Positions 1-62,424 of a stretch of DNA of 62,424 nucleotides are shown in pieces. The notes beneath the pieces were generated by a model that was not told the origin of the DNA, made no database searches, and saw nothing but the letters and a program-made list of their open reading frames with translations. A program made the position numbers and the translations under genes. The stretch spans positions 1 to 62,424 of IMG/VR virus record IMGVR_UViG_3300042397_000683; one strand, 5' to 3'. How positions within the stretch are numbered: the first letter of the stretch is position 1; the number at the start of each line of letters is the position of its first letter. The DNA comes from a virus.

Positions 1-97
1 AGCAAGAAAGAATCCAAATCAGAAAAGAAAAGCGAGTCCAAGAAATCGAACGCTGTGGCGAATCCGATTATATATAGCTCGGACTTTACGGTCGCTC
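1..97. repeat. Terminal direct repeat, left copy (circle closure)
   Basis: These 97 bases are identical to 62328-62424. The reading frame continues through the join: codons for a Ser/Lys/Glu-rich linker at the right end run on into the same codons here. This is what an assembler leaves when it closes a circle, so the unique genome is about 62,327 bp. The repeat could instead be a short physical terminal repeat, but it falls inside a coding sequence and its length is typical of an assembly k-mer. Confidence 0.93.
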
Positions 98-693
98 CAG
101 CAAGTGATGTCATTTCTATTATCGCAAGCGTAGGACTTAGTCAAAGTTCTCTAATGGGAAACTCTTCGTGGGGTATATCTTCTATGATATGGTCTACGTT
201 CGACCAGTTTGCTTTATCAGGTAGATACACCTTAATGAACTTCTCAGAAGGCAAGATGCAGTCCATCTCTAACTTCGGCGTCACAGGCGTCTATTTAGGG
301 GGCACAACGCTCGGATTTGTTACCGCTGCACATATCCAACCTTTAGGCAAATATGGTGTCTCAGGAGCCAACTATACGCTTAGTGTTGCAGGCGCAGATG
401 CTGGTCTCAACATCAGTAATAACGTAATGCTATTCTATACTATACCAGTTAAGATTAGCAAGAGACTGACAATATCGCCTGACATCTACCTATCAGGTAG
501 CTCAACAGGTTATTTAACGGCACAACAAAAGTTTATTACATCAGATGACATTGGGGTGCTTACAGGCGCATCCTTTGATATAGCGCTTACTAAACGCTTT
601 AAGTTTAATTTTGCGCTAAAGACTGGATTCAATACCAATCCAATTATTCCACAAAGTTATTTGGGTATGATTGGGACAAAGATAAATTTATAG
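1..693 (+). CDS. C-terminal part of a predicted outer-membrane beta-barrel protein (gene crosses the circle join)
   Basis: This is the 3' part of the gene that starts at 61749; joined, it codes for about 423 residues. The first 18 codons end the Ser/Lys/Glu linker. From about codon 19 the protein becomes a domain of some 210 residues rich in alternating polar/hydrophobic and aromatic stretches with many Gly, Ser and Thr, ending in a strand that finishes in Leu. That pattern is what one expects of a small outer-membrane beta-barrel, but I recognise no named family. An internal GTG at 55 could pass for a start, but the open frame continues upstream through it and across the join, where a GTG followed by a signal peptide is found. 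It is the last gene of the exported-protein cassette that includes a CsgG-like protein. Confidence 0.8.
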   Translation, partial: SKKESKSEKKSESKKSNAVANPIIYSSDFTVAPASDVISIIASVGLSQSSLMGNSSWGISSMIWSTFDQFALSGRYTLMNFSEGKMQSISNFGVTGVYLGGTTLGFVTAAHIQPLGKYGVSGANYTLSVAGADAGLNISNNVMLFYTIPVKISKRLTISPDIYLSGSSTGYLTAQQKFITSDDIGVLTGASFDIALTKRFKFNFALKTGFNTNPIIPQSYLGMIGTKINL

Positions 694-39525: not shown

Positions 39526-41535
39526 ATGTATAGGAAACATAAAGGAAGTAAAGAGTTTCAGATAATGGGTGTGTCTTGTTGGCGTCCACCTGTTGGGATG
39601 GTTTGGAACGTAATGACGTCTCAATGGGAGCGCAGAGAGATGTATGAGCGTTCATCAAGAACCAATAACCAATACTGGGAAAGACCTTTGCCTCCAGTAG
39701 ATTACGACTTAAAACGAAAGAAAGAGATTGCTTCTCAACGACAAAATCCTGAGTATTATAACCCTGAGCTTCAGGAGTATCGTAATCAGGAGTGGGATAG
39801 ACGCTTAAACGGATTCTGGTTTTACAATAACGGCAAGCCCACTTACATAACAGGGCTTCATTATTTTTATTTAGTCCATTGGAAAATAGATGTAGGCTAT
39901 CCTGATTTCCGCGTTACTGACTTAGAGTTCTTTTATTTCTTAGAGTATGTTGTACAAGACCCTAATAGCTTAGGGATGATTGAGGTTACTAAGCGTCGTC
40001 AAGGTAAGACGATGCGCGCTGGGGCCTTTTTGTTTGAATTAACCTCTCGTAGCAAGAATAAGAATGCGGGGATTCAGTCTAAGACATACGAGGATGCCAA
40101 GGATAACGTATTTGCAAAGGGTGTCGTAATGCCATTTAAGTACCTACCCGATTTCTTTGTTCCGATTTACGATACCGAAAAGGGTATGACCCCCAAAGGG
40201 GATTTGCGTTTTTTCAAGACAAACAAACGGGGTGCTGTAGAAGACTCATTTGCTGAAAAGATTGAGCTTGAGTCAGCTATTACATTTAAGTCTTCAGATA
40301 AGTTTGCCTACGATGGTATGAAGATTCATCGTTACTTAGCTGATGAAGCAGGTAAAACTAAGAACGTAGACGTGTATGAGCGCCATCAAGTCGTGCAGTT
40401 TTGTCTTCAACAAGAAGAGAACATTATTGGCAAGGCACTATACACCACTACCGTAGAGGAAATGGAAGATGGAGGAGCTTCGTTTAAAGAGTTATGGAAA
40501 GCATCTAATCAGCTACATAAGAATGCCAACGGTAGAACAATGTCTGGCTTGTATCAATACTTTATGCCAGCTTATAGAACATTGTTTTATGATAAATATG
40601 GCTTTGCTGACGAAGAGAAGGCTAAAAAGTTTTATCTAGCAGAACGTGCGGCATTAGAGGTTGACCCGCGAGCTTTAGCTTCTTTTATCCGCAAGAATCC
40701 TTTTACAATTGAGGAGGCATTCTTTAGTGAAGCAGAAACTTGTTTATATGATGCAATGAAAATCAATAGACAGATAGAATCTATAACGTGGGTAAATGAA
40801 AAAGAATTATATTTGCGTGGAGAATTTGTTTGGGAAAATGGAGAACGCGACACTAGAGTCGTATTCAAGACTAGTTCCAATGGAAAATTCTTGGTACATT
40901 CGAAGGTAAATCCGTCTGATACAAGTTTTTATAATCAGGTGGAAAATTATGGAACTAAGAAGGTGCCTAAAAATAGCAACAAGTTTGCTATAGGTTGCGA
41001 CCCTTTTGACCATAGCATTACAACGAGTAAAGAACGCTCTGATGGCGCTGCTTACGTTTATCGTAAGTTTGATGCTATGGATGAGCTAAGTGAGACATTC
41101 TTAGTCGAATATCTTAATAGACCTGATAAGGCTGAGATATTCTACGAGGATATGATTAAGATGGCGCATTTCTTTGGTTGCGAATTGCTGTCAGAGGACA
41201 ACAAGGTAGGGTTAATTAAATACTTTGAATACAGAGGATACGATAGGTTCTTAACGAAGATGCCTAACTCCTCCAAATTTGGAGTATCCGCGTCTGTGAA
41301 GATGCATCAGCAGATAGCCGAGCAGACCGAAACCTACATTGAAGAAAACATCCACAAAGTTGTCTTCAAGAACCTGTTGGAGGATTGGTTGCATTTTGAT
41401 ATTAATAAGACTACAAAATTTGACGCCGCTATGGCAAGTGGGTATACGTTAATAGCCGCGAGTAAATCTAAATTTGCTCAAAAGATTGAAGAAAAACAAC
41501 ACATTTACGACGTAAGGGAGATATTCCCATTTTAA
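39526..41535 (+). CDS. terL: Terminase large subunit
   Basis: A 669-residue protein. The ATPase half has EVTKRRQGKT (about 153-162, deviant Walker A) and HRYLADEAGK (about 268-277, Walker B with catalytic Glu). The nuclease half begins IGCDPFDH (about 490), with LLSEDN around 560 and DAAMASGYTLIA at the end supplying further acidic residues. It drives DNA into the prohead and cuts at the packaging site. The adjacent portal gene starts three bases after its stop. Length and order match podovirus-type terminases. Confidence 0.9.
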   Translation: MYRKHKGSKEFQIMGVSCWRPPVGMVWNVMTSQWERREMYERSSRTNNQYWERPLPPVDYDLKRKKEIASQRQNPEYYNPELQEYRNQEWDRRLNGFWFYNNGKPTYITGLHYFYLVHWKIDVGYPDFRVTDLEFFYFLEYVVQDPNSLGMIEVTKRRQGKTMRAGAFLFELTSRSKNKNAGIQSKTYEDAKDNVFAKGVVMPFKYLPDFFVPIYDTEKGMTPKGDLRFFKTNKRGAVEDSFAEKIELESAITFKSSDKFAYDGMKIHRYLADEAGKTKNVDVYERHQVVQFCLQQEENIIGKALYTTTVEEMEDGGASFKELWKASNQLHKNANGRTMSGLYQYFMPAYRTLFYDKYGFADEEKAKKFYLAERAALEVDPRALASFIRKNPFTIEEAFFSEAETCLYDAMKINRQIESITWVNEKELYLRGEFVWENGERDTRVVFKTSSNGKFLVHSKVNPSDTSFYNQVENYGTKKVPKNSNKFAIGCDPFDHSITTSKERSDGAAYVYRKFDAMDELSETFLVEYLNRPDKAEIFYEDMIKMAHFFGCELLSEDNKVGLIKYFEYRGYDRFLTKMPNSSKFGVSASVKMHQQIAEQTETYIEENIHKVVFKNLLEDWLHFDINKTTKFDAAMASGYTLIAASKSKFAQKIEEKQHIYDVREIFPF

Positions 41536-41538
41536 GCT

Positions 41539-43839
41539 ATGATGGAACAAGATGTACCAAAGAATATGGACTTTCCAAGCCATTTAATCGACACCGATAA
41601 AAAGGATAAGAACTGGATTTCCCAGTATATTAAAGCAGCTTGGAGAGATTTTGGAACCTATTATCCTAATCAATTATACAACGGCCGAGAGAATTACCAC
41701 GAGATTAAGTTGTATATGCTTGGTAAACAGTCGATTAGCAGATACAAGAAGCTAGTTAATCCATCTTCTACTGCAAACGAAGACCAATCTACATCTAACA
41801 TAAGCTGGGACATCCTTCCTATTATCCCTAAGTTTCGTCGTATTGCACTAGCTACATTAATGAAGTCTGACTTCAATATATCTGTAGATGCAATTGACCC
41901 TATCGCGCAAGACGATAAGAATAAATTCTACGCTGATAACGCGGCTAAATTAATCCTTAAAGAAGAGTTTGAAAAGCAAGGTGTAGACCCCGATTTGATT
42001 CCAGGCCCCGATGTTGATGCAGCTAACCTTAAAGAGCTTGATATGTATATGAATTACTCATATAAGCATAGAATGGCTATTGAGATGGAGCAAGCTATTG
42101 ACCTTGTGTTAAATATGAATAGTTTTCCGCAAGAGCGCGCGTTAGTTATTGAAGACTTGCACGACTTTGGTATTGCAGGCTACAGAGAATACTTTGACGC
42201 TGCGGGCAACATTAAACTTCGTCGCGTAAATCCTTCTAATATGGTTATGTCTTATACGACTAGCCCATCATTCAAGGATGTTCAGTATATGGGCGAGGTA
42301 GTAGAGATGACAATATCTGACTTAAAAGAATTAGCTGGCGACCAGATTTCTGCTGAGCAGTATCAAATGATTGCCGAGAAATACACGAATAAGCTTGGTA
42401 ATCCAACATTAGTTAAGAATACTGGTTTTAATCAGACTCGTAACTACGATGGATTCCGCATCTCAGTATTAGATATTGAGTTTTACTCTGTTAATAGCAT
42501 TATCTTAGAGGAGCGCGTTAACTCAAAAGGTAACGTAGTTGTAGGCCGCGCGTCAAAAGTAAAAGGGAATCGCAAAGATAAGAAATACTCTAAGACAGAC
42601 TACAAAGTAGTTTACCAAGGCAAGTGGATTGTAGATAGCGATGTATTCTTTGATTGTGAGTTAGCAACAAATATGAAGCGCGCTAAGTCAGACTTGACTA
42701 ATACGTCTTTATCTTACCACGTTGTAGCACCTAACATCTATCAGATGGTTACTTACTCGTTAGGTAGCCAAATGAAAGCGATTGCTGACCAGATTCAGTT
42801 AGCTTGGTACAAACTACAGAACGTGATGCTACGCGCGCGTCCTCGTGGTATTATGATTGAAATTGGAGCACTAGAGAGTGTGCCTATAGGTAAAGGTGGT
42901 AAAGCACTTAAGCCAATGGAAATCATTGACCTATACAATCAGACAGGTAACTTAGTTTACCGTAGATTGTCTGACGAAGGTAATGCAAGCAATTATAAGC
43001 CTATTGAAGAGCTTGATAACGGTATTGGTAATGAAGCAGTGCAATACTTTAACATTATTACTAATAATATCCAGTTACTTCGCGACATTTTAGGATTTAA
43101 TGAGATTACGGACGGCTCAACACCTGACCCACGTACATTAAATGGTGTGGCGAAGTACGCATCTGAGTCTACTAACAACTCTTTGGACTTTATTAAACGT
43201 GCTGAGAGAGAGTTGCTAGAGAAATTATGCTACGCGCTAACACTTCGTATCCAAGATTCTGCAGAGAATGGGGCTATTGAAGGTTATATTCGCGCGCTAG
43301 GTAGTTCTTCAGTACAATTCTTCAAGTTAGACCCTAATACTAGTGCTCACGAGTGCGGTTTAGTGATTACTCAGAAGCCAACAGAGTTTGAAAAGGAGAA
43401 ATTCGCGCAAAGGGTTAATATTGCAATTCAATCTGGACAGATTACCTTGGCGGATGCTATTATGCTTGAGAATCTTGAGAATATGAAGTATGCTGAGGTA
43501 ATGCTTGCATACAAGATTAAGCAAAATGAGCAAGATAAGCAGAAGAAGGCTCTAGAGATGCAACAAATGAATGGACAGATTCAACAGCAATCTGCTCAAG
43601 CAGCTGAAGCCGCCAAACAGCAAACTCTTCAATTAGAAATTCAACTTAAGTCACAATATTTGCAGCTTGAAAAACAGCTTGAGAGTCAATTGCTAGCAAT
43701 GAAGCTTCAGAATGAAGCGATGATTGAGCAAGGTAAGCTTGAAGGTAAGATTAATACTGCAAAGATTGAGGCAGACAGCCGCGAGTACATAGCTCAAATT
43801 AAGAAGAGCGAAAAAGCAGTTGGAAATAAGGCTGAATAG
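41539..43839 (+). CDS. Portal protein
   Basis: A 766-residue protein between terminase and scaffold. The N-terminal part has FPSHLIDTDKKDKNWISQYI and TNSF-like strands, followed by IPKFRRIALATLMKSDFNIS (about residues 95-115), the hallmark region of crAss-like and related portals. The C-terminal 110 residues form a Gln/Glu/Lys-rich coiled coil (QQQSAQAAEAAKQQTLQLEI), typical of the barrel in large portals. It forms the ring at one vertex through which DNA passes. Confidence 0.85.
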   Translation: MMEQDVPKNMDFPSHLIDTDKKDKNWISQYIKAAWRDFGTYYPNQLYNGRENYHEIKLYMLGKQSISRYKKLVNPSSTANEDQSTSNISWDILPIIPKFRRIALATLMKSDFNISVDAIDPIAQDDKNKFYADNAAKLILKEEFEKQGVDPDLIPGPDVDAANLKELDMYMNYSYKHRMAIEMEQAIDLVLNMNSFPQERALVIEDLHDFGIAGYREYFDAAGNIKLRRVNPSNMVMSYTTSPSFKDVQYMGEVVEMTISDLKELAGDQISAEQYQMIAEKYTNKLGNPTLVKNTGFNQTRNYDGFRISVLDIEFYSVNSIILEERVNSKGNVVVGRASKVKGNRKDKKYSKTDYKVVYQGKWIVDSDVFFDCELATNMKRAKSDLTNTSLSYHVVAPNIYQMVTYSLGSQMKAIADQIQLAWYKLQNVMLRARPRGIMIEIGALESVPIGKGGKALKPMEIIDLYNQTGNLVYRRLSDEGNASNYKPIEELDNGIGNEAVQYFNIITNNIQLLRDILGFNEITDGSTPDPRTLNGVAKYASESTNNSLDFIKRAERELLEKLCYALTLRIQDSAENGAIEGYIRALGSSSVQFFKLDPNTSAHECGLVITQKPTEFEKEKFAQRVNIAIQSGQITLADAIMLENLENMKYAEVMLAYKIKQNEQDKQKKALEMQQMNGQIQQQSAQAAEAAKQQTLQLEIQLKSQYLQLEKQLESQLLAMKLQNEAMIEQGKLEGKINTAKIEADSREYIAQIKKSEKAVGNKAE

Positions 43840-58068: not shown

Positions 58069-58527
58069 ATGAGACTACTGCTCAGCATATTGTTATTTTG
58101 GACAATGCGTCCCACAGAAATAACTGTAGCATCTGTACAGAATAATGTACAGATTGGCGCTCTTGCTGGCAATAGGAACTTAGAGTTTGGTGTTAAAAAT
58201 ATGCTAGAGGAGTTCTTGCAAGAAGCAGGACACGATGTCTCCGATGATGCACCAACTCAGATTAAGGTAGAGATTCTTTATTTAGACGTATTAAAAACTC
58301 AGTCTAATCTATCAGTATTCCACAACAATAAGGAAGCTGTAGTAATTAGAATGAGGGGCAAATTAATACAGGATGGAAAGGTTAAAAAGACCGTTATCGT
58401 TGAAGAGCAAGCAGCTGAAGTTTCAATGTCTGCATTACTAATTGACGAGGGCGGTAAATTTAACCAAACCAACTTAAGCTCTGCATTAAAGAAATCTTGT
58501 AACACCTTAATCACTAAGCTCTTATAA
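58069..58527 (+). CDS. Exported or envelope-anchored protein, 152 aa (first gene of the export cassette)
   Basis: A 152-residue protein. A short hydrophobic start (RLLLSILLFW) could act as a signal or anchor; no lipobox follows. The rest has an alternating helix/strand layout (KNMLEEFLQEAGHDVSDD, then TQIKVEILYLDVLKTQSNL, then a helix-rich end). It is reminiscent of the small alpha/beta envelope lipoprotein fold used by CsgG/LptE-type proteins, though I cannot verify that. It begins the cassette ending at the circle join; the next gene starts one base before its stop. Confidence 0.55.
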   Translation: MRLLLSILLFWTMRPTEITVASVQNNVQIGALAGNRNLEFGVKNMLEEFLQEAGHDVSDDAPTQIKVEILYLDVLKTQSNLSVFHNNKEAVVIRMRGKLIQDGKVKKTVIVEEQAAEVSMSALLIDEGGKFNQTNLSSALKKSCNTLITKLL

Positions 58528-60302
58528 TGAAAAAACTATTGTTTGCCCTTGCAGCAATTCTGCTGCTTACCTACAGCACATCTGCTCAAACAGTTAAATT
58601 AAGTTTGCAAAATGCAAACACCAATACCAATGTTGACGGAAACGTTATCAACAAAGGGGATGAGTTCTTAGTAACGGTAATGGCAGATGGCAATAGCAAC
58701 ACAACTACCCGCGCTCTTTACTTTGATTTTGAATATCAGAATACTGCATTCCAGTTAATGACTGTTAATCATACAGGAACTATGGGCAACGGAGGCATTA
58801 TGCCAGCTGGCTCACAAATTTCAATAAGCCATTACGATTACCCAGGATATAGTTTTGCTAAGACTAGCTTAAATTCTACAGCTAACGGCAACACAAACTA
58901 TATTAACTCCCAATACAATTATACACAGGGAGGCTCTAAGTCAATTCTTCGTGTCTATCTTAACTGGGCTGTTAATAGCGGAGGTCTAGGTAACGATAGG
59001 TTATTAGTTCTTAAGTTCAAACTAAAGACAGATGCTCCAGGATTTGCTTGGAATCCTATTGTAATGAACTTTGCGGCAGCGTTTAATCAGAATGGCACTA
59101 GTGGCTCAACCTTGATGACAACGCCTCTTACAAGCGTTATTATGCTAGACCCAACTGCTACTAGATATATCAATCCAACGATTGATTACAACGCAAATGT
59201 GGACGTGCAATCTCTACATAGAATTGCATTTACAGACTCAGTTGCTAATACAACTTACTTAGTGGACGCCTTATCTGATGGTACAATACCTGTAGACCAG
59301 ACGCGCTTCAAGCCTAATACAGTCTACCACATTAGGACGCTATTTAATATGGATAGTATTAAAGACTTATCCGCGGCAGCAGTTACTGTTTCTGACTACA
59401 CTACTGCGCAGGCTGAGTTTGTTACACAAAACTTAGACGGAACATTCAAGAATCAAAGCATAATTACAGGTGCAGGATATTATGCCTCAGACGTTAACTT
59501 TAACAAGACGTTAGATGGAGGAGACTTAGTTAGATTGTTTGCGCAGGTATCAGGTGTAGAATCATTAGTTACGCTGCCTACTAGTTATGCATCAGGTACA
59601 GATATGTATATGAGTGTACCTACGTTTACGGATTCTACATTTAACGCTATGACGGCGTCTAGCTGGAAGACTGTTGCTAATAATTACGTTCGCTTTAAGA
59701 CAGCCGAAATCGGCAAGAACCTACCATTAAAGATTAAGTTCTTAATCCCAGGAGATATAAACAGAAGCCATAGCTCACAGGTTATTATTAATAATTCTAT
59801 TGCAACTAACGCTGTGCCTAGTTTAAAGAAAAACTTAGCTACAAAGCAGACAGCGCATCTTTTAATTAACACGCCTCAGCTTATTCCATCTATTAATGTT
59901 ACAATTTCAGGTAAAACTGTAACAACTAATAGTTTTGATATACCTGTTAAAGTTTCTTCTGGAGCAACAAGTGTATCAGCTCTGCAATTTGAGTTCGTTT
60001 ATGACCCAACAAAAGTTAAATTTGTAGCGCTTTTAAATGAACTGCCTAACACTTGGTATACCTTTGTGGATAATAAGGCAGGACGCGTAAGATTTGGGGC
60101 ACTAGATAAGGACTTAAAAAATCCAGTAGCAGGAGACCTTACTCCATTTACCTTAAAGTTTGAGACAATAGGTAACGGAGCAGACATTAATAGCTTTATT
60201 AAGGTGTCTCCTAATATGGATGCGGCATCAAAGACAGGATACCAACTAGGGATTAATTTAAACCTAGAGGTTATAAAATTAACGGGAATAAATAACTTTT
60301 AG
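58527..60302 (+). CDS. Secreted protein with cohesin-like domains and a dockerin-like middle, 591 aa
   Basis: A 591-residue protein with a signal peptide (MKKLLFALAAILLLTYSTSAQ; cut after Ala-20). The region 22-210 has the beta layout of a cohesin (ALYFDFEYQNTAF...), and 457-585 is a clearer cohesin (SFDIPVKVSSGATSVSALQF, then VKFVALLNELPN and FGALDKDLKN). Between them a dockerin-type calcium loop is seen: SDVNFNKTLDGGDLVRLF (about 321-338) and a second half GDINRSHSS (about 408-416). Cohesins and dockerins bind each other, so one protein carrying both could chain or fold back on itself. It sits in the export cassette with a lipoprotein and a CsgG-like protein. Confidence 0.7.
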   Translation: MKKLLFALAAILLLTYSTSAQTVKLSLQNANTNTNVDGNVINKGDEFLVTVMADGNSNTTTRALYFDFEYQNTAFQLMTVNHTGTMGNGGIMPAGSQISISHYDYPGYSFAKTSLNSTANGNTNYINSQYNYTQGGSKSILRVYLNWAVNSGGLGNDRLLVLKFKLKTDAPGFAWNPIVMNFAAAFNQNGTSGSTLMTTPLTSVIMLDPTATRYINPTIDYNANVDVQSLHRIAFTDSVANTTYLVDALSDGTIPVDQTRFKPNTVYHIRTLFNMDSIKDLSAAAVTVSDYTTAQAEFVTQNLDGTFKNQSIITGAGYYASDVNFNKTLDGGDLVRLFAQVSGVESLVTLPTSYASGTDMYMSVPTFTDSTFNAMTASSWKTVANNYVRFKTAEIGKNLPLKIKFLIPGDINRSHSSQVIINNSIATNAVPSLKKNLATKQTAHLLINTPQLIPSINVTISGKTVTTNSFDIPVKVSSGATSVSALQFEFVYDPTKVKFVALLNELPNTWYTFVDNKAGRVRFGALDKDLKNPVAGDLTPFTLKFETIGNGADINSFIKVSPNMDAASKTGYQLGINLNLEVIKLTGINNF

Positions 60303-60307
60303 TTAAG

Positions 60308-60661
60308 ATGAAAAATACGATAGCGGTTTTGTTGATAGTGATGCTTGCAGCTTGCCAAGACATTGAAGTGTTAGAAAAGGAAACAAGCCTCGGTTCGATT
60401 CCGCAACTAACAGATATTACTAGTCTTGTAGTGGATAGCAAGCAGGCTACTATTGTAGCAAATACAACTGTAGGGGCTAAATACTCTGTGCAGGTGTACA
60501 AATTCGGAAGTTCCGAACCACTAAGAACTGTTGGATTTACAGCTACATCAGTAGCTACTATTAAGACTATTAAATTAGATACATTGTCTCGCGGGTTATA
60601 TGACTTAACTTTGACGGACGTATCAGGCGTAACAATTAAAAAACCTTTAATCATTAATTAA
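60308..60661 (+). CDS. Lipoprotein with a small beta domain, 117 aa
   Basis: A 117-residue protein with a lipoprotein signal: MKNTIAVLLIVMLAAC, with the lipobox Leu-Ala-Ala-Cys ending at residue 16. The Gln-Asp-Ile-Glu that follows the Cys is like the acidic export tag of surface-exposed Bacteroidetes lipoproteins. Residues 40-117 form an Ig-like or beta-sandwich stretch (KQATIVANTTVGAKYSVQVY). It may display or tether the cassette's cohesin-like protein on the cell surface, which is inferred from neighbourhood only. Confidence 0.65.
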   Translation: MKNTIAVLLIVMLAACQDIEVLEKETSLGSIPQLTDITSLVVDSKQATIVANTTVGAKYSVQVYKFGSSEPLRTVGFTATSVATIKTIKLDTLSRGLYDLTLTDVSGVTIKKPLIIN

Positions 60662-60662
60662 A

Positions 60663-60971
60663 ATGGCAGAAGAACAAGAAGGCGGAGGCTCATTAAAGAG
60701 CATCCTTATCGGACTAGCAAGTACTATCGCACTAGGTGTAGGTGGGTTTGTGACTAAACAATTAACAGGCGAAGAGGAAGCAGCGGCTGCACCAGCGGCA
60801 GTAACAGCTCCAGCACCCGTAATTAACATTACAACTAACAACACGCAACAGCAAAAGCAAGCTGCAAGCGCAGGTGGGGGAACTAAGGTTATTGAGCGCG
60901 TTGTAGAGAAGCCAGCAGCACCTAAGAAGAAGACTGAAAAGGAGGCGCTACAGGAAGAGCCTAAGTGGTAA
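60663..60971 (+). CDS. Small membrane-anchored protein, 102 aa
   Basis: A 102-residue protein with one hydrophobic helix (ILIGLASTIALGVGGFV, residues 14-30), then Ala/Pro/Thr-rich linker and a Lys/Glu/Pro tail (VIERVVEKPAAPKKKTEK). The linker and charged end suggest that it spans the periplasm or reaches out from the membrane. It lies directly before the CsgG-like gene. Family not recognised. Confidence 0.5.
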   Translation: MAEEQEGGGSLKSILIGLASTIALGVGGFVTKQLTGEEEAAAAPAAVTAPAPVINITTNNTQQQKQAASAGGGTKVIERVVEKPAAPKKKTEKEALQEEPKW

Positions 60972-61041: not shown

Positions 61042-61752
61042 ATGAAGAAGATATTATTCTTGTCACTAATATTGACAACATTTGTTACAAAAGCACAAGT
61101 AGCTTCTGTTAAAACAGAAGCCTACACAGCATCGTTTGAGAAGAAGATTAATATCGATTCATTAATAAACTATGATGGTCCAAAGATTCCTATTCAGCTA
61201 TTGTCTTTAGGTATCAATGAAGAGGTATACGCGGCGTATCCTGAGCTAAAAGACAAGCGTGTGGGTCTTGGTGTCACTAACATTGTTATCGAGTTCCTAG
61301 AGGAAACTAATCGCTTCACGTTTACCGAAGACAAAGCTGAGATTAAGAACAGAATGGTCAAGCAGTTCCAAGCTTCACAGGCTGGAATCTCTGAGAATAA
61401 GCTAGATGGCAGAGGTAAAATCAAGTTAGCTCAATACTTTGTTTACATCGAATGCTACGACTTCTCTATTAGTGAAGATGAATCCATTTCAATTAAAGGC
61501 GACACAAAGCAAACTGTGGTCACGCGATTAGGTTTGCAGGTAAAATTCGTTAATGCAGAGACTGGAGAGTTTTTTACAGGCTCAGGATTAGGAGAAGCTA
61601 AAACTACGCGCGAGGCTACATTAATGAATGACGGCAACTTCGCGGAGGTTAAGTTTAATCAATCTACTATTGGTACAACAACCAAGAAGGCGCTAGAGAA
61701 TGCTTCAGCTAAGATTATCGTTCGAATGATTAAGAAGAAGATATTCAAGTGA
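61042..61752 (+). CDS. CsgG-family outer-membrane secretion-pore-like protein, 236 aa
   Basis: A 236-residue protein with a signal peptide (MKKILFLSLILTTFVTKAQ). The mature part resembles CsgG: VGLGVTNIVIEFLEETNRFT (about 75-95) followed by AEIKNRMVKQFQASQAG, the helix pair that in CsgG follows the 'degradation' loop, then GKIKLAQYFVYIECYDFS and a C-terminal beta/helix with TTTKKALENASAKIIVRM. CsgG forms a nonameric pore that exports curli subunits through the outer membrane. Two differences: the mature N-terminus lacks the lipid-carrying cysteine, and no CsgE/CsgF-like partners are next to it. The match is by pattern and spacing. Confidence 0.6.
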   Translation: MKKILFLSLILTTFVTKAQVASVKTEAYTASFEKKINIDSLINYDGPKIPIQLLSLGINEEVYAAYPELKDKRVGLGVTNIVIEFLEETNRFTFTEDKAEIKNRMVKQFQASQAGISENKLDGRGKIKLAQYFVYIECYDFSISEDESISIKGDTKQTVVTRLGLQVKFVNAETGEFFTGSGLGEAKTTREATLMNDGNFAEVKFNQSTIGTTTKKALENASAKIIVRMIKKKIFK

Positions 61753-62424
61753 AATGGTTATGGCTTCTGATACTTATTCTGACATTCTTTGGTGCTAAAG
61801 GGCAGGTACTAACACAAGTATTCGTTGACCCTTGTAGCGGAAGAGTAACTACTGTAGTCGTACCAATTGCTAATGGAAAAACAACTGTCGTCTATCGAGG
61901 ACAATACAGAGTAGTAACGGCAAACGATATTACTTCAGGAGCATTACAAGCGTGGATTAACGATTTAACTATTAACTTCCCTTGTCCGCAAGCTACTGTT
62001 GCTGTACAACAAACCGTTACAAACGCAGTTCAACAAGCGGTAGCACAAGCCACAGCAGCAGCAACAGCAACTGCGACAGCGGCGGCTACTTCAGCAGCAA
62101 CATCTGCGGCAACATCAGCTGCCTCCTCAGCGGCATCAGGAGCAGCATCTTCAGCAGCAAGTAGTGCGGCATCGTCAACGCCAGCACCAGCAACGTCATC
62201 ATCAAGCAGTTCAAGTAGTTCATCTCAAGGCGAGAGTAGTTCTCCTAAAACGGAGTCTAAGTCAGAAACAAAGTCAGAGTCTAAAAGCGAAGAGAAATCT
62301 GAATCTAAATCCGAATCAAAAAGTGAAAGCAAGAAAGAATCCAAATCAGAAAAGAAAAGCGAGTCCAAGAAATCGAACGCTGTGGCGAATCCGATTATAT
62401 ATAGCTCGGACTTTACGGTCGCTC
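61749..62424 (+). CDS. Envelope/surface protein with signal peptide and low-complexity linker (5' part; gene crosses the circle join)
   Basis: The 5' part of a gene of about 424 codons whose 3' part is at 1-693. It starts at GTG 61749, overlapping the upstream stop by three bases, and opens with a signal peptide (MKWLWLLILILTFFGAKGQ). A small beta-rich domain with DPCSGRVTTVVVPIANGKTT follows, then QQTVTNAVQQAVAQATAAAT and about 90 residues of Ala/Ser/Thr repeats, then Ser/Lys/Glu repeats (KSESKSEEKSESK), then the beta-barrel-like part across the join. The linker may span peptidoglycan or hold the barrel away from a surface domain. No ATG is available in frame before the signal peptide, so GTG is the start. 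Confidence 0.75.
   Translation, partial: MKWLWLLILILTFFGAKGQVLTQVFVDPCSGRVTTVVVPIANGKTTVVYRGQYRVVTANDITSGALQAWINDLTINFPCPQATVAVQQTVTNAVQQAVAQATAAATATATAAATSAATSAATSAASSAASGAASSAASSAASSTPAPATSSSSSSSSSSQGESSSPKTESKSETKSESKSEEKSESKSESKSESKKESKSEKKSESKKSNAVANPIIYSSDFTVA
62328..62424. repeat. Terminal direct repeat, right copy
   Basis: Identical base for base to 1-97. It lies inside the Ser/Lys/Glu-rich coding repeat, which joins in frame with the left end. Trimming one copy gives the circular genome of about 62,327 bp. Confidence 0.93.

What the first reader, a model, noticed from the sequence alone, without database searches (positions are those of the whole stretch)
58527..60302. One phage protein carries two cohesin-like domains and a dockerin-like calcium loop
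Seen: SDVNFNKTLDGGDLVRLF matches the D-x-N-x-N/D-x-x-x-D-x-x-D-L dockerin loop, with a second half GDINRSHSS, between N- and C-terminal cohesin-like beta domains, after a signal peptide. Known: cohesin-dockerin pairs give very tight binding. Inferred: the protein may chain into a filament or self-lock. I know of no phage example.
Basis: partly seen in the sequence, partly recalled or inferred. Interest (0 to 1): 0.75.

Follow-up and report, generated by a model that had tools for sequence, protein, structure and literature searches.

The report
Phage-encoded cohesin–dockerin surface protein module
A large family of viruses that infect Bacteroidota bacteria carries a conserved set of exported proteins built from the same calcium-dependent 'plug and socket' domains (dockerin and cohesin) that bacteria use to assemble cellulosomes, apparently to build something on the surface of the infected cell.

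Summary
ORF 58527-60302 (591 aa) has a signal peptide, two cohesin domains (aa 22-212; 453-591, Z 15.7 to type I cohesins) and between them an Ig-like X domain with one complete dockerin-type calcium loop (D322-N324-N326-D330-D333, kept almost throughout 46 homologues). GDINRSHSS is real and invariant, but 87 aa downstream, so this is not a canonical dockerin. I read it as a circularly permuted dockerin whose first loop is split between GDIN (C-terminal) and D290 (N-terminal). Bacteroidota T9SS proteins show the same X-Doc-Coh order. 'No phage example' is wrong: Flavobacterium phage immuto has an annotated one, and IMG/VR holds hundreds of contigs with the module. The protein is the core of an operon (YajG-like, COH, lipoprotein, TM protein, conserved exported protein, outer-membrane barrel). 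The C-terminal T9SS sorting domain is either fused to COH or replaced by the adjacent lipoprotein, never both (35 versus 73 non-redundant loci). In immuto COH is split into CohN-X-Doc and CohC-sorting domain. Relatives add C-type lectin, GEVED or PA14 domains on another dockerin. Likely role: a calcium-dependent surface complex on infected cells. Binding, display and purpose are inferred; a filament is possible but unsupported.

The parts
58069..58527 (+). YajG-like (Lipoprotein_16-like) exported protein, first gene of the module; its stop overlaps the COH start
   Evidence: Pfam PF03923 E 2.9e-4, below cut-off; homologue next to the COH gene in 75 of 79 loci; immuto gp019 homologue E 6.7e-12
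58527..60302 (+). COH protein, 591 aa: signal peptide, CohN, X domain, dockerin-like domain, CohC
58527..58589 (+). signal peptide MKKLLFALAAILLLTYSTSAQ (aa 1-21)
   Evidence: sequence; hydrophobic leader ending in AQ/SQ/GQ in the full-length homologues
58590..59162 (+). CohN, N-terminal cohesin-like beta domain (aa 22-212)
   Evidence: hhalign against cellular cohesins prob 94.1, E 1.3e-7; cohesin dyad 3l8q aligns 19..590
59163..59351 (+). X domain, Ig/transthyretin-like strands (aa 213-275), completed by strands after the helices (aa 361-405)
   Evidence: AF2 strands on both sides of the helices; best VIA Z 5.7, transthyretin-like and FN3-like rows, weak
59388..59423 (+). dockerin helix 1 (aa 288-299) with invariant S289-D290, proposed position-12 ligand of calcium site 1
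   Evidence: invariant in A2; helix in AF2
59490..59552 (+). complete dockerin-type calcium loop D322-x-N-x-N-x-x-L-D-x-x-D333 and its helix (aa 322-342)
   Evidence: profile hit to ScaH dockerin 8ajy_B at this segment, E 0.15
59751..59777 (+). GDINRSHSS (aa 409-417), proposed displaced first half of calcium loop 1; C-terminal end of the X-Doc domain
   Evidence: GD and N invariant in 46/46; lectin-Doc proteins and immuto gp014 end just after it
59883..60299 (+). CohC, C-terminal type I-like cohesin domain (aa 453-591)
   Evidence: Pfam PF00963; VIA Z 15.7, rmsd 2.1, 134 aa to 6kgf_A
60308..60661 (+). lipoprotein with a domain like the T9SS type A sorting domain (LpT9)
   Evidence: invariant Cys16 after the signal; hhalign to T9SS CTD seeds prob 94.3, E 1e-7; replaces the fused CTD with no exceptions
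60663..60971 (+). small single-TM protein of the module
   Evidence: syntenic in 65 of 79 loci; immuto gp016 E 6e-21
61042..61752 (+). most conserved module protein, exported, phage-specific; CsgG-like pattern only suggestive
   Evidence: 74% mean column identity; no cellular homologues; Pfam none; hhalign to CsgG prob 7
61749..62423 (+). exported protein cut off by the window end; full-length relatives (about 360-465 aa) end in a probable outer-membrane beta-barrel
   Evidence: sequence of full-length relatives; immuto gp018 E 3e-24

Best explanation
The ORF encodes a late, Sec-exported phage protein with two cohesin domains and one calcium-binding, circularly permuted dockerin carried on an X (Ig-like) domain. 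It is the scaffold of a phage-encoded complex on the surface of the infected Bacteroidota cell. The dockerin pairs with the CohC domain: within one chain in this phage, between two proteins in immuto-type phages. The complex is held at the outer membrane either by a T9SS sorting domain fused to CohC or, as here, by the neighbouring lipoprotein that carries a sorting-domain-like fold. In relatives the free CohN would receive a second dockerin protein bearing a glycan-binding-type domain (C-type lectin, GEVED or PA14). Shown by computation: domains, conservation, operon, gene fission, sorting-domain swapping. Inferred: calcium binding, the permuted site, which dockerin binds which cohesin, late expression, surface display, and the purpose (altering adhesion or recognition of the infected cell, for example superinfection exclusion).
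For: CohC fold Z 15.7; CohN profile match; calcium ligands conserved across homologues of 35-85% identity. Same X-Doc-Coh order in Bacteroidota proteins: L095, L136, L138, L139, L140; hhalign colinear 250-539, prob 95.7. Gene fission: immuto gp014 ends at GDVNGTGLN and gp015 = CohC + TIGR04183. T9SS CTD or LpT9, never both: 35 versus 73 non-redundant loci. Second dockerin proteins with Lectin_C, GEVED or PA14. COH next to the CsgG-like gene in all 178 scored loci. Precedent for phage-encoded T9SS cargo: Cryophage (PMC7468147).
Against: No binding, calcium or localisation data. Foldseek/VIA on the X-Doc model found no dockerin (best Z 5.7). Dockerin_1 is below threshold throughout. CohN and CohC are only distantly alike (prob 11). 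No second dockerin protein was found in window-type phages. The fission and swapping could reflect covalent domain order without a binding interface.
Confidence: 0.5

Rival explanations
1. Monomeric calcium-stabilised surface protein: the cohesin and dockerin-like domains are structural beta and EF-hand-like modules that pack in cis and bind no partner protein.
For: The domains are covalently linked in most relatives; the dockerin is atypical and not recognised by Pfam; the X-Doc model has no dockerin match in the PDB.
Against: Immuto and its relatives encode CohN-X-Doc and CohC as separate proteins in adjacent genes; free lectin-Doc proteins end with the dockerin.
Confidence: 0.25
2. Self-polymerising filament: the dockerin of one COH molecule binds the cohesin of the next.
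For: One dockerin and two cohesins in one chain make head-to-tail chaining possible in principle.
Against: No direct evidence; a dockerin beside its own CohC favours cis pairing; the split immuto version with one CTD on gp015 would give a short chain, not a polymer.
Confidence: 0.1
3. Virion-associated adhesin (tail or decoration protein) used for receptor binding.
For: Lies downstream of a tail-fibre-like gene and the lysis genes; lectin-type domains in relatives resemble receptor-binding domains.
Against: Signal peptides on most module proteins, a lipoprotein, T9SS sorting domains and an outer-membrane barrel; tailed-phage virions assemble in the cytoplasm (general knowledge).
Confidence: 0.1
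4. Part of the lysis/envelope-disruption machinery, acting on the outer membrane at the end of infection.
For: The endolysin gene is a close neighbour in 66 of 79 loci.
Against: The module keeps together when the endolysin block moves to its other side (for example L050-L054, L075-L081); no known lysis domain in it.
Confidence: 0.05

Closest known systems
Cellulosomal cohesin and dockerin modules (type I cohesins such as CaCohA2 in 6kgf, X-dockerin dyad of CipA in 3kcp/4fl4)
   Same: C-terminal domain has the cohesin fold (Z 15.7); Coh, X and Doc modules in one chain; calcium-loop motif followed by a helix; Foldseek ranks CipA Coh-X-Doc entries high
   Different: Only one complete calcium loop; half-loops in permuted order 87 aa apart; no enzyme; phage gene; 11-18% identity
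Non-cellulosomal X-Doc-Coh proteins of Bacteroidota with T9SS-type tails (L095, L138-L140)
   Same: Same order, AADVN...D loop, W, GDVNxS motif, then cohesin
   Different: Cellular; the window protein lacks a fused tail and has a long insert between the helices and GDIN
Flavobacterium phage immuto gp013-gp019
   Same: Every module gene has a homologue or, for the lipoprotein, its domain
   Different: COH split into gp014 (CohN-X-Doc) and gp015 (CohC + T9SS CTD); extra C-type lectin-Doc protein; YajG-like gene at the other end of the module
Cryophage T9SS cargo proteins (PMC7468147)
   Same: Phage-encoded T9SS cargo, including a PA14-domain protein
   Different: The paper's text has no mention of cohesin

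Membership tests
Cohesin domain (PF00963) | Jelly-roll cohesin fold in CohC | tested here: met
   AF2 model aa 454-589 to 6kgf_A Z 15.7, rmsd 2.1, 134 aa; Pfam in 39/46 homologues
Cohesin domain (PF00963) | Cohesin identity of the N-terminal domain | tested here: met
   hhalign prob 94.1 to cellular cohesins; dyad 3l8q aligned 19..590; no Pfam hit there, so distant
Cohesin domain (PF00963) | Binds a dockerin | not testable with these tools
   needs a binding assay
Dockerin type I (PF00404) | Profile score over the curated cut-off | tested here: not met
   no hit in this genome; best among relatives 19.3 bits against 22.9 in L193, starting at model position 9
Dockerin type I (PF00404) | Two complete tandem calcium-loop-helix repeats in canonical order | tested here: not met
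   one complete loop (aa 322-333); second DxN motif at aa 410, 87 aa later, with no helix directly after it
Dockerin type I (PF00404) | Dockerin fold | tested here: inconclusive
   no dockerin among the listed Foldseek/VIA matches of the X-Doc model; sequential aligners can miss a permuted, inserted domain
T9SS type A cargo | C-terminal sorting domain on the COH protein | tested here: not met
   absent from the window protein; present in relatives with fused CTD and as a separate lipoprotein-borne domain here
CsgG family (protein 61042-61752) | Profile match to CsgG | tested here: inconclusive
   Pfam none, PDB none, hhalign prob 7.3 colinear

The most novel reading that the evidence does not exclude
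Phages of Bacteroidota encode a modular, calcium-dependent cohesin-dockerin complex with exchangeable lectin-type domains, exported through host Sec and T9SS or held by a lipoprotein, that re-coats the surface of the infected cell: a viral counterpart of cellulosome assembly, with a circularly permuted dockerin.
Probability: 0.35. Interest if true: 0.85.

Novelty: new variant of a known kind. Interest (0 to 1): 0.7.

Why it matters
Cohesin-dockerin pairs are among the tightest protein interactions in microbiology and are known from bacteria and archaea. A conserved viral set, with gene fission and fusion, sorting-domain swapping and exchangeable lectins, would show that phages build their own structures on the infected cell. 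Because immuto is an isolated phage with a named host strain, the idea is directly testable, and the module marks a very large group of uncultured phages.

Tried and rejected
Canonical dockerin: rejected, because Dockerin_1 does not score and the repeat order is wrong. CsgG secretion channel for 61042-61752: resemblance in part of the sequence only, hhalign prob 7, Pfam and PDB none; left open. Profile A2 against 198 Bacteroidota genomes found only the phage-like contig of G001, so cellular relatives were found through PF00963 and the L095 region instead. phmmer of the protein against PDB sequences: none. Dockerin fold from the X-Doc model: no match listed. Joint loss of D290 and GDIN as a test of the permuted site: inconclusive; of four adhesin-Doc proteins lacking GDxN, some keep an Asp near that place. 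Phage cohesin literature: no pertinent paper found with the terms used; permuted dockerin literature: nothing pertinent in the held library, which lacks most subscription journals.

Full report
Observation. ORF 58527-60302 encodes 591 aa beginning with a clear signal peptide. The quoted segments are at aa 321 and aa 409. Pfam Cohesin matches aa 458-546 just below its cut-off in the window protein and in 39 of 46 homologues at E up to 1, best 1.5e-11. The loop pattern alone would appear in 0.7% of shuffles of the protein; what makes it more than chance is conservation. Across 46 aligned sequences (35-85% identity to this one), D322 and D330 are kept in 45, D333 in 46, and GD-x-N-x-SHSS in all (A2). 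The window is a whole 62,424-base virus record, classed as linear, so it is probably a fragment.

Structure. AlphaFold2 on the A2 alignment gave mean pLDDT 85 and pTM 0.62. The C-terminal 453-591 is a type I-like cohesin (6kgf_A, Z 15.7, rmsd 2.1 over 134 aa). The N-terminal domain is a beta domain that a cohesin dyad (3l8q) aligns together with the C-terminal one (rmsd over both domains is 30, presumably because their orientation differs), and profile comparison with 25 cellular cohesins gives 94.1% probability against 0.4% for the X-Doc control. Between them lies a beta sandwich whose strands flank helices. That region alone has no confident PDB match (best Z 5.7).

The dockerin. There is one complete calcium-loop-helix (aa 322-342). 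The second DxN motif lies 87-88 residues later and is followed by no helix, whereas an earlier helix (288-299) starts with invariant S289-D290 but has no conserved DxN before it. The simplest reading is a circularly permuted dockerin inserted in the X domain: DxN of site 1 from GDIN at the C-terminus, position-12 Asp (D290) at the N-terminus. Support: Dockerin_1 partial matches in relatives L193 and L191 begin at model positions 9 and 10, and immuto gp014 and the lectin-Doc proteins end just after the GDxN motif. This is an inference; distances in the model could not be measured with the tools given.

Cellular relatives. Cohesin domains occur in 85 of 247 Bacteroidota genomes sampled. Several proteins have X, helix with TD, AADVNxSGSVNGTDAF-type loop, W, GDVNxS, then cohesin (L095, L136, L138, L139, L140); in L095 a further cohesin precedes X, the same order as in the phage protein. 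The phage profile aligns to them colinearly over aa 250-539 (prob 95.7, pairwise E 9e-9), while unrelated controls scored 0.2-2.6, and 39.7 for one over the signal peptide only.

The module. In the 79 loci compared the order YajG-like, COH, lipoprotein, TM protein, CsgG-like gene is largely kept (75, 79, 76, 65 and 76 loci), also where the endolysin block sits on the other side. In all 178 scored loci with that gene and either enough flank or a COH hit, a COH gene is present (some contigs counted twice). Isolated Flavobacterium phage immuto_2-6A carries the set as gp013-gp019. There gp014 holds CohN-X-Doc and gp015 holds CohC plus a T9SS type A sorting domain (TIGR04183 E 9.3e-12, Cohesin E 5.9e-9). 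In other relatives the sorting domain is fused to COH; in the window type it is absent and an adjacent lipoprotein has a sorting-domain-like fold (hhalign prob 94.3). The two states exclude each other: 73 loci with the lipoprotein, 35 with the fused domain, none with both or neither, after removing loci with identical CsgG-like proteins. Relatives with the fused domain often add a second protein of C-type lectin or GEVED (or PA14 in L259) joined to X-Doc; immuto-type phages do the same with lectin, PA14 or GEVED.

Mechanism. Gene fission between Doc and CohC, and free dockerin proteins beside cohesin scaffolds, favour a cohesin-dockerin complex. Signal peptides, the lipoprotein Cys, T9SS domains and an apparent outer-membrane barrel point to the cell envelope. 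[quoted passage not shown]), and crAss-like phages with T9SS sorting domains (PMC6949934). Which dockerin binds which cohesin, calcium dependence, timing, display and purpose are untested.

Comparison and novelty. It uses cohesin domains (membership met) and works like a cohesin-dockerin system, but it is not a canonical dockerin (membership not met). Neither phage T9SS cargo nor a phage cohesin annotation is new; I found no report of a phage cohesin-dockerin set in the searched library, which is incomplete. I rate it a new variant of a known kind.

Noticed in passing
61042-61752: The most conserved protein of the module (74% mean column identity), exported, phage-specific; parts resemble CsgG by eye but the profile test is inconclusive. 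It is a good marker for a very widespread Bacteroidota phage group.
   Followed up: partly
61749-62423 and relatives such as L010:8441-9673: Exported protein with an Ala/Ser/Lys-rich linker and, in full-length relatives, a C-terminal stretch that looks like an outer-membrane beta-barrel; no convincing Pfam family.
   Followed up: partly
L040:5774-6772 (immuto gp013); L261:11081-12532; L264:11345-12448; L185:5558-6835: Phage proteins joining C-type lectin, GEVED or PA14 domains to a dockerin-like domain, apparently exchanged between related phages.
   Followed up: partly
L235:1801-6511: Two COH-type proteins in tandem, one with a C-type lectin in place of CohN, followed by two LpT9 lipoproteins.
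   Followed up: no
39526-43839: Terminase related to those of Flavobacterium elemo and Cellulophaga phages at about 32% identity (portal), whereas the module matches the 160-kb phage immuto: the module appears to move between phage lineages.
   Followed up: no
L081 (Flavobacterium MAG Ww15, 12.6-kb contig): The only genome-contig hit of the COH profile is a short contig holding the same phage module, probably phage DNA binned with the MAG.
   Followed up: no
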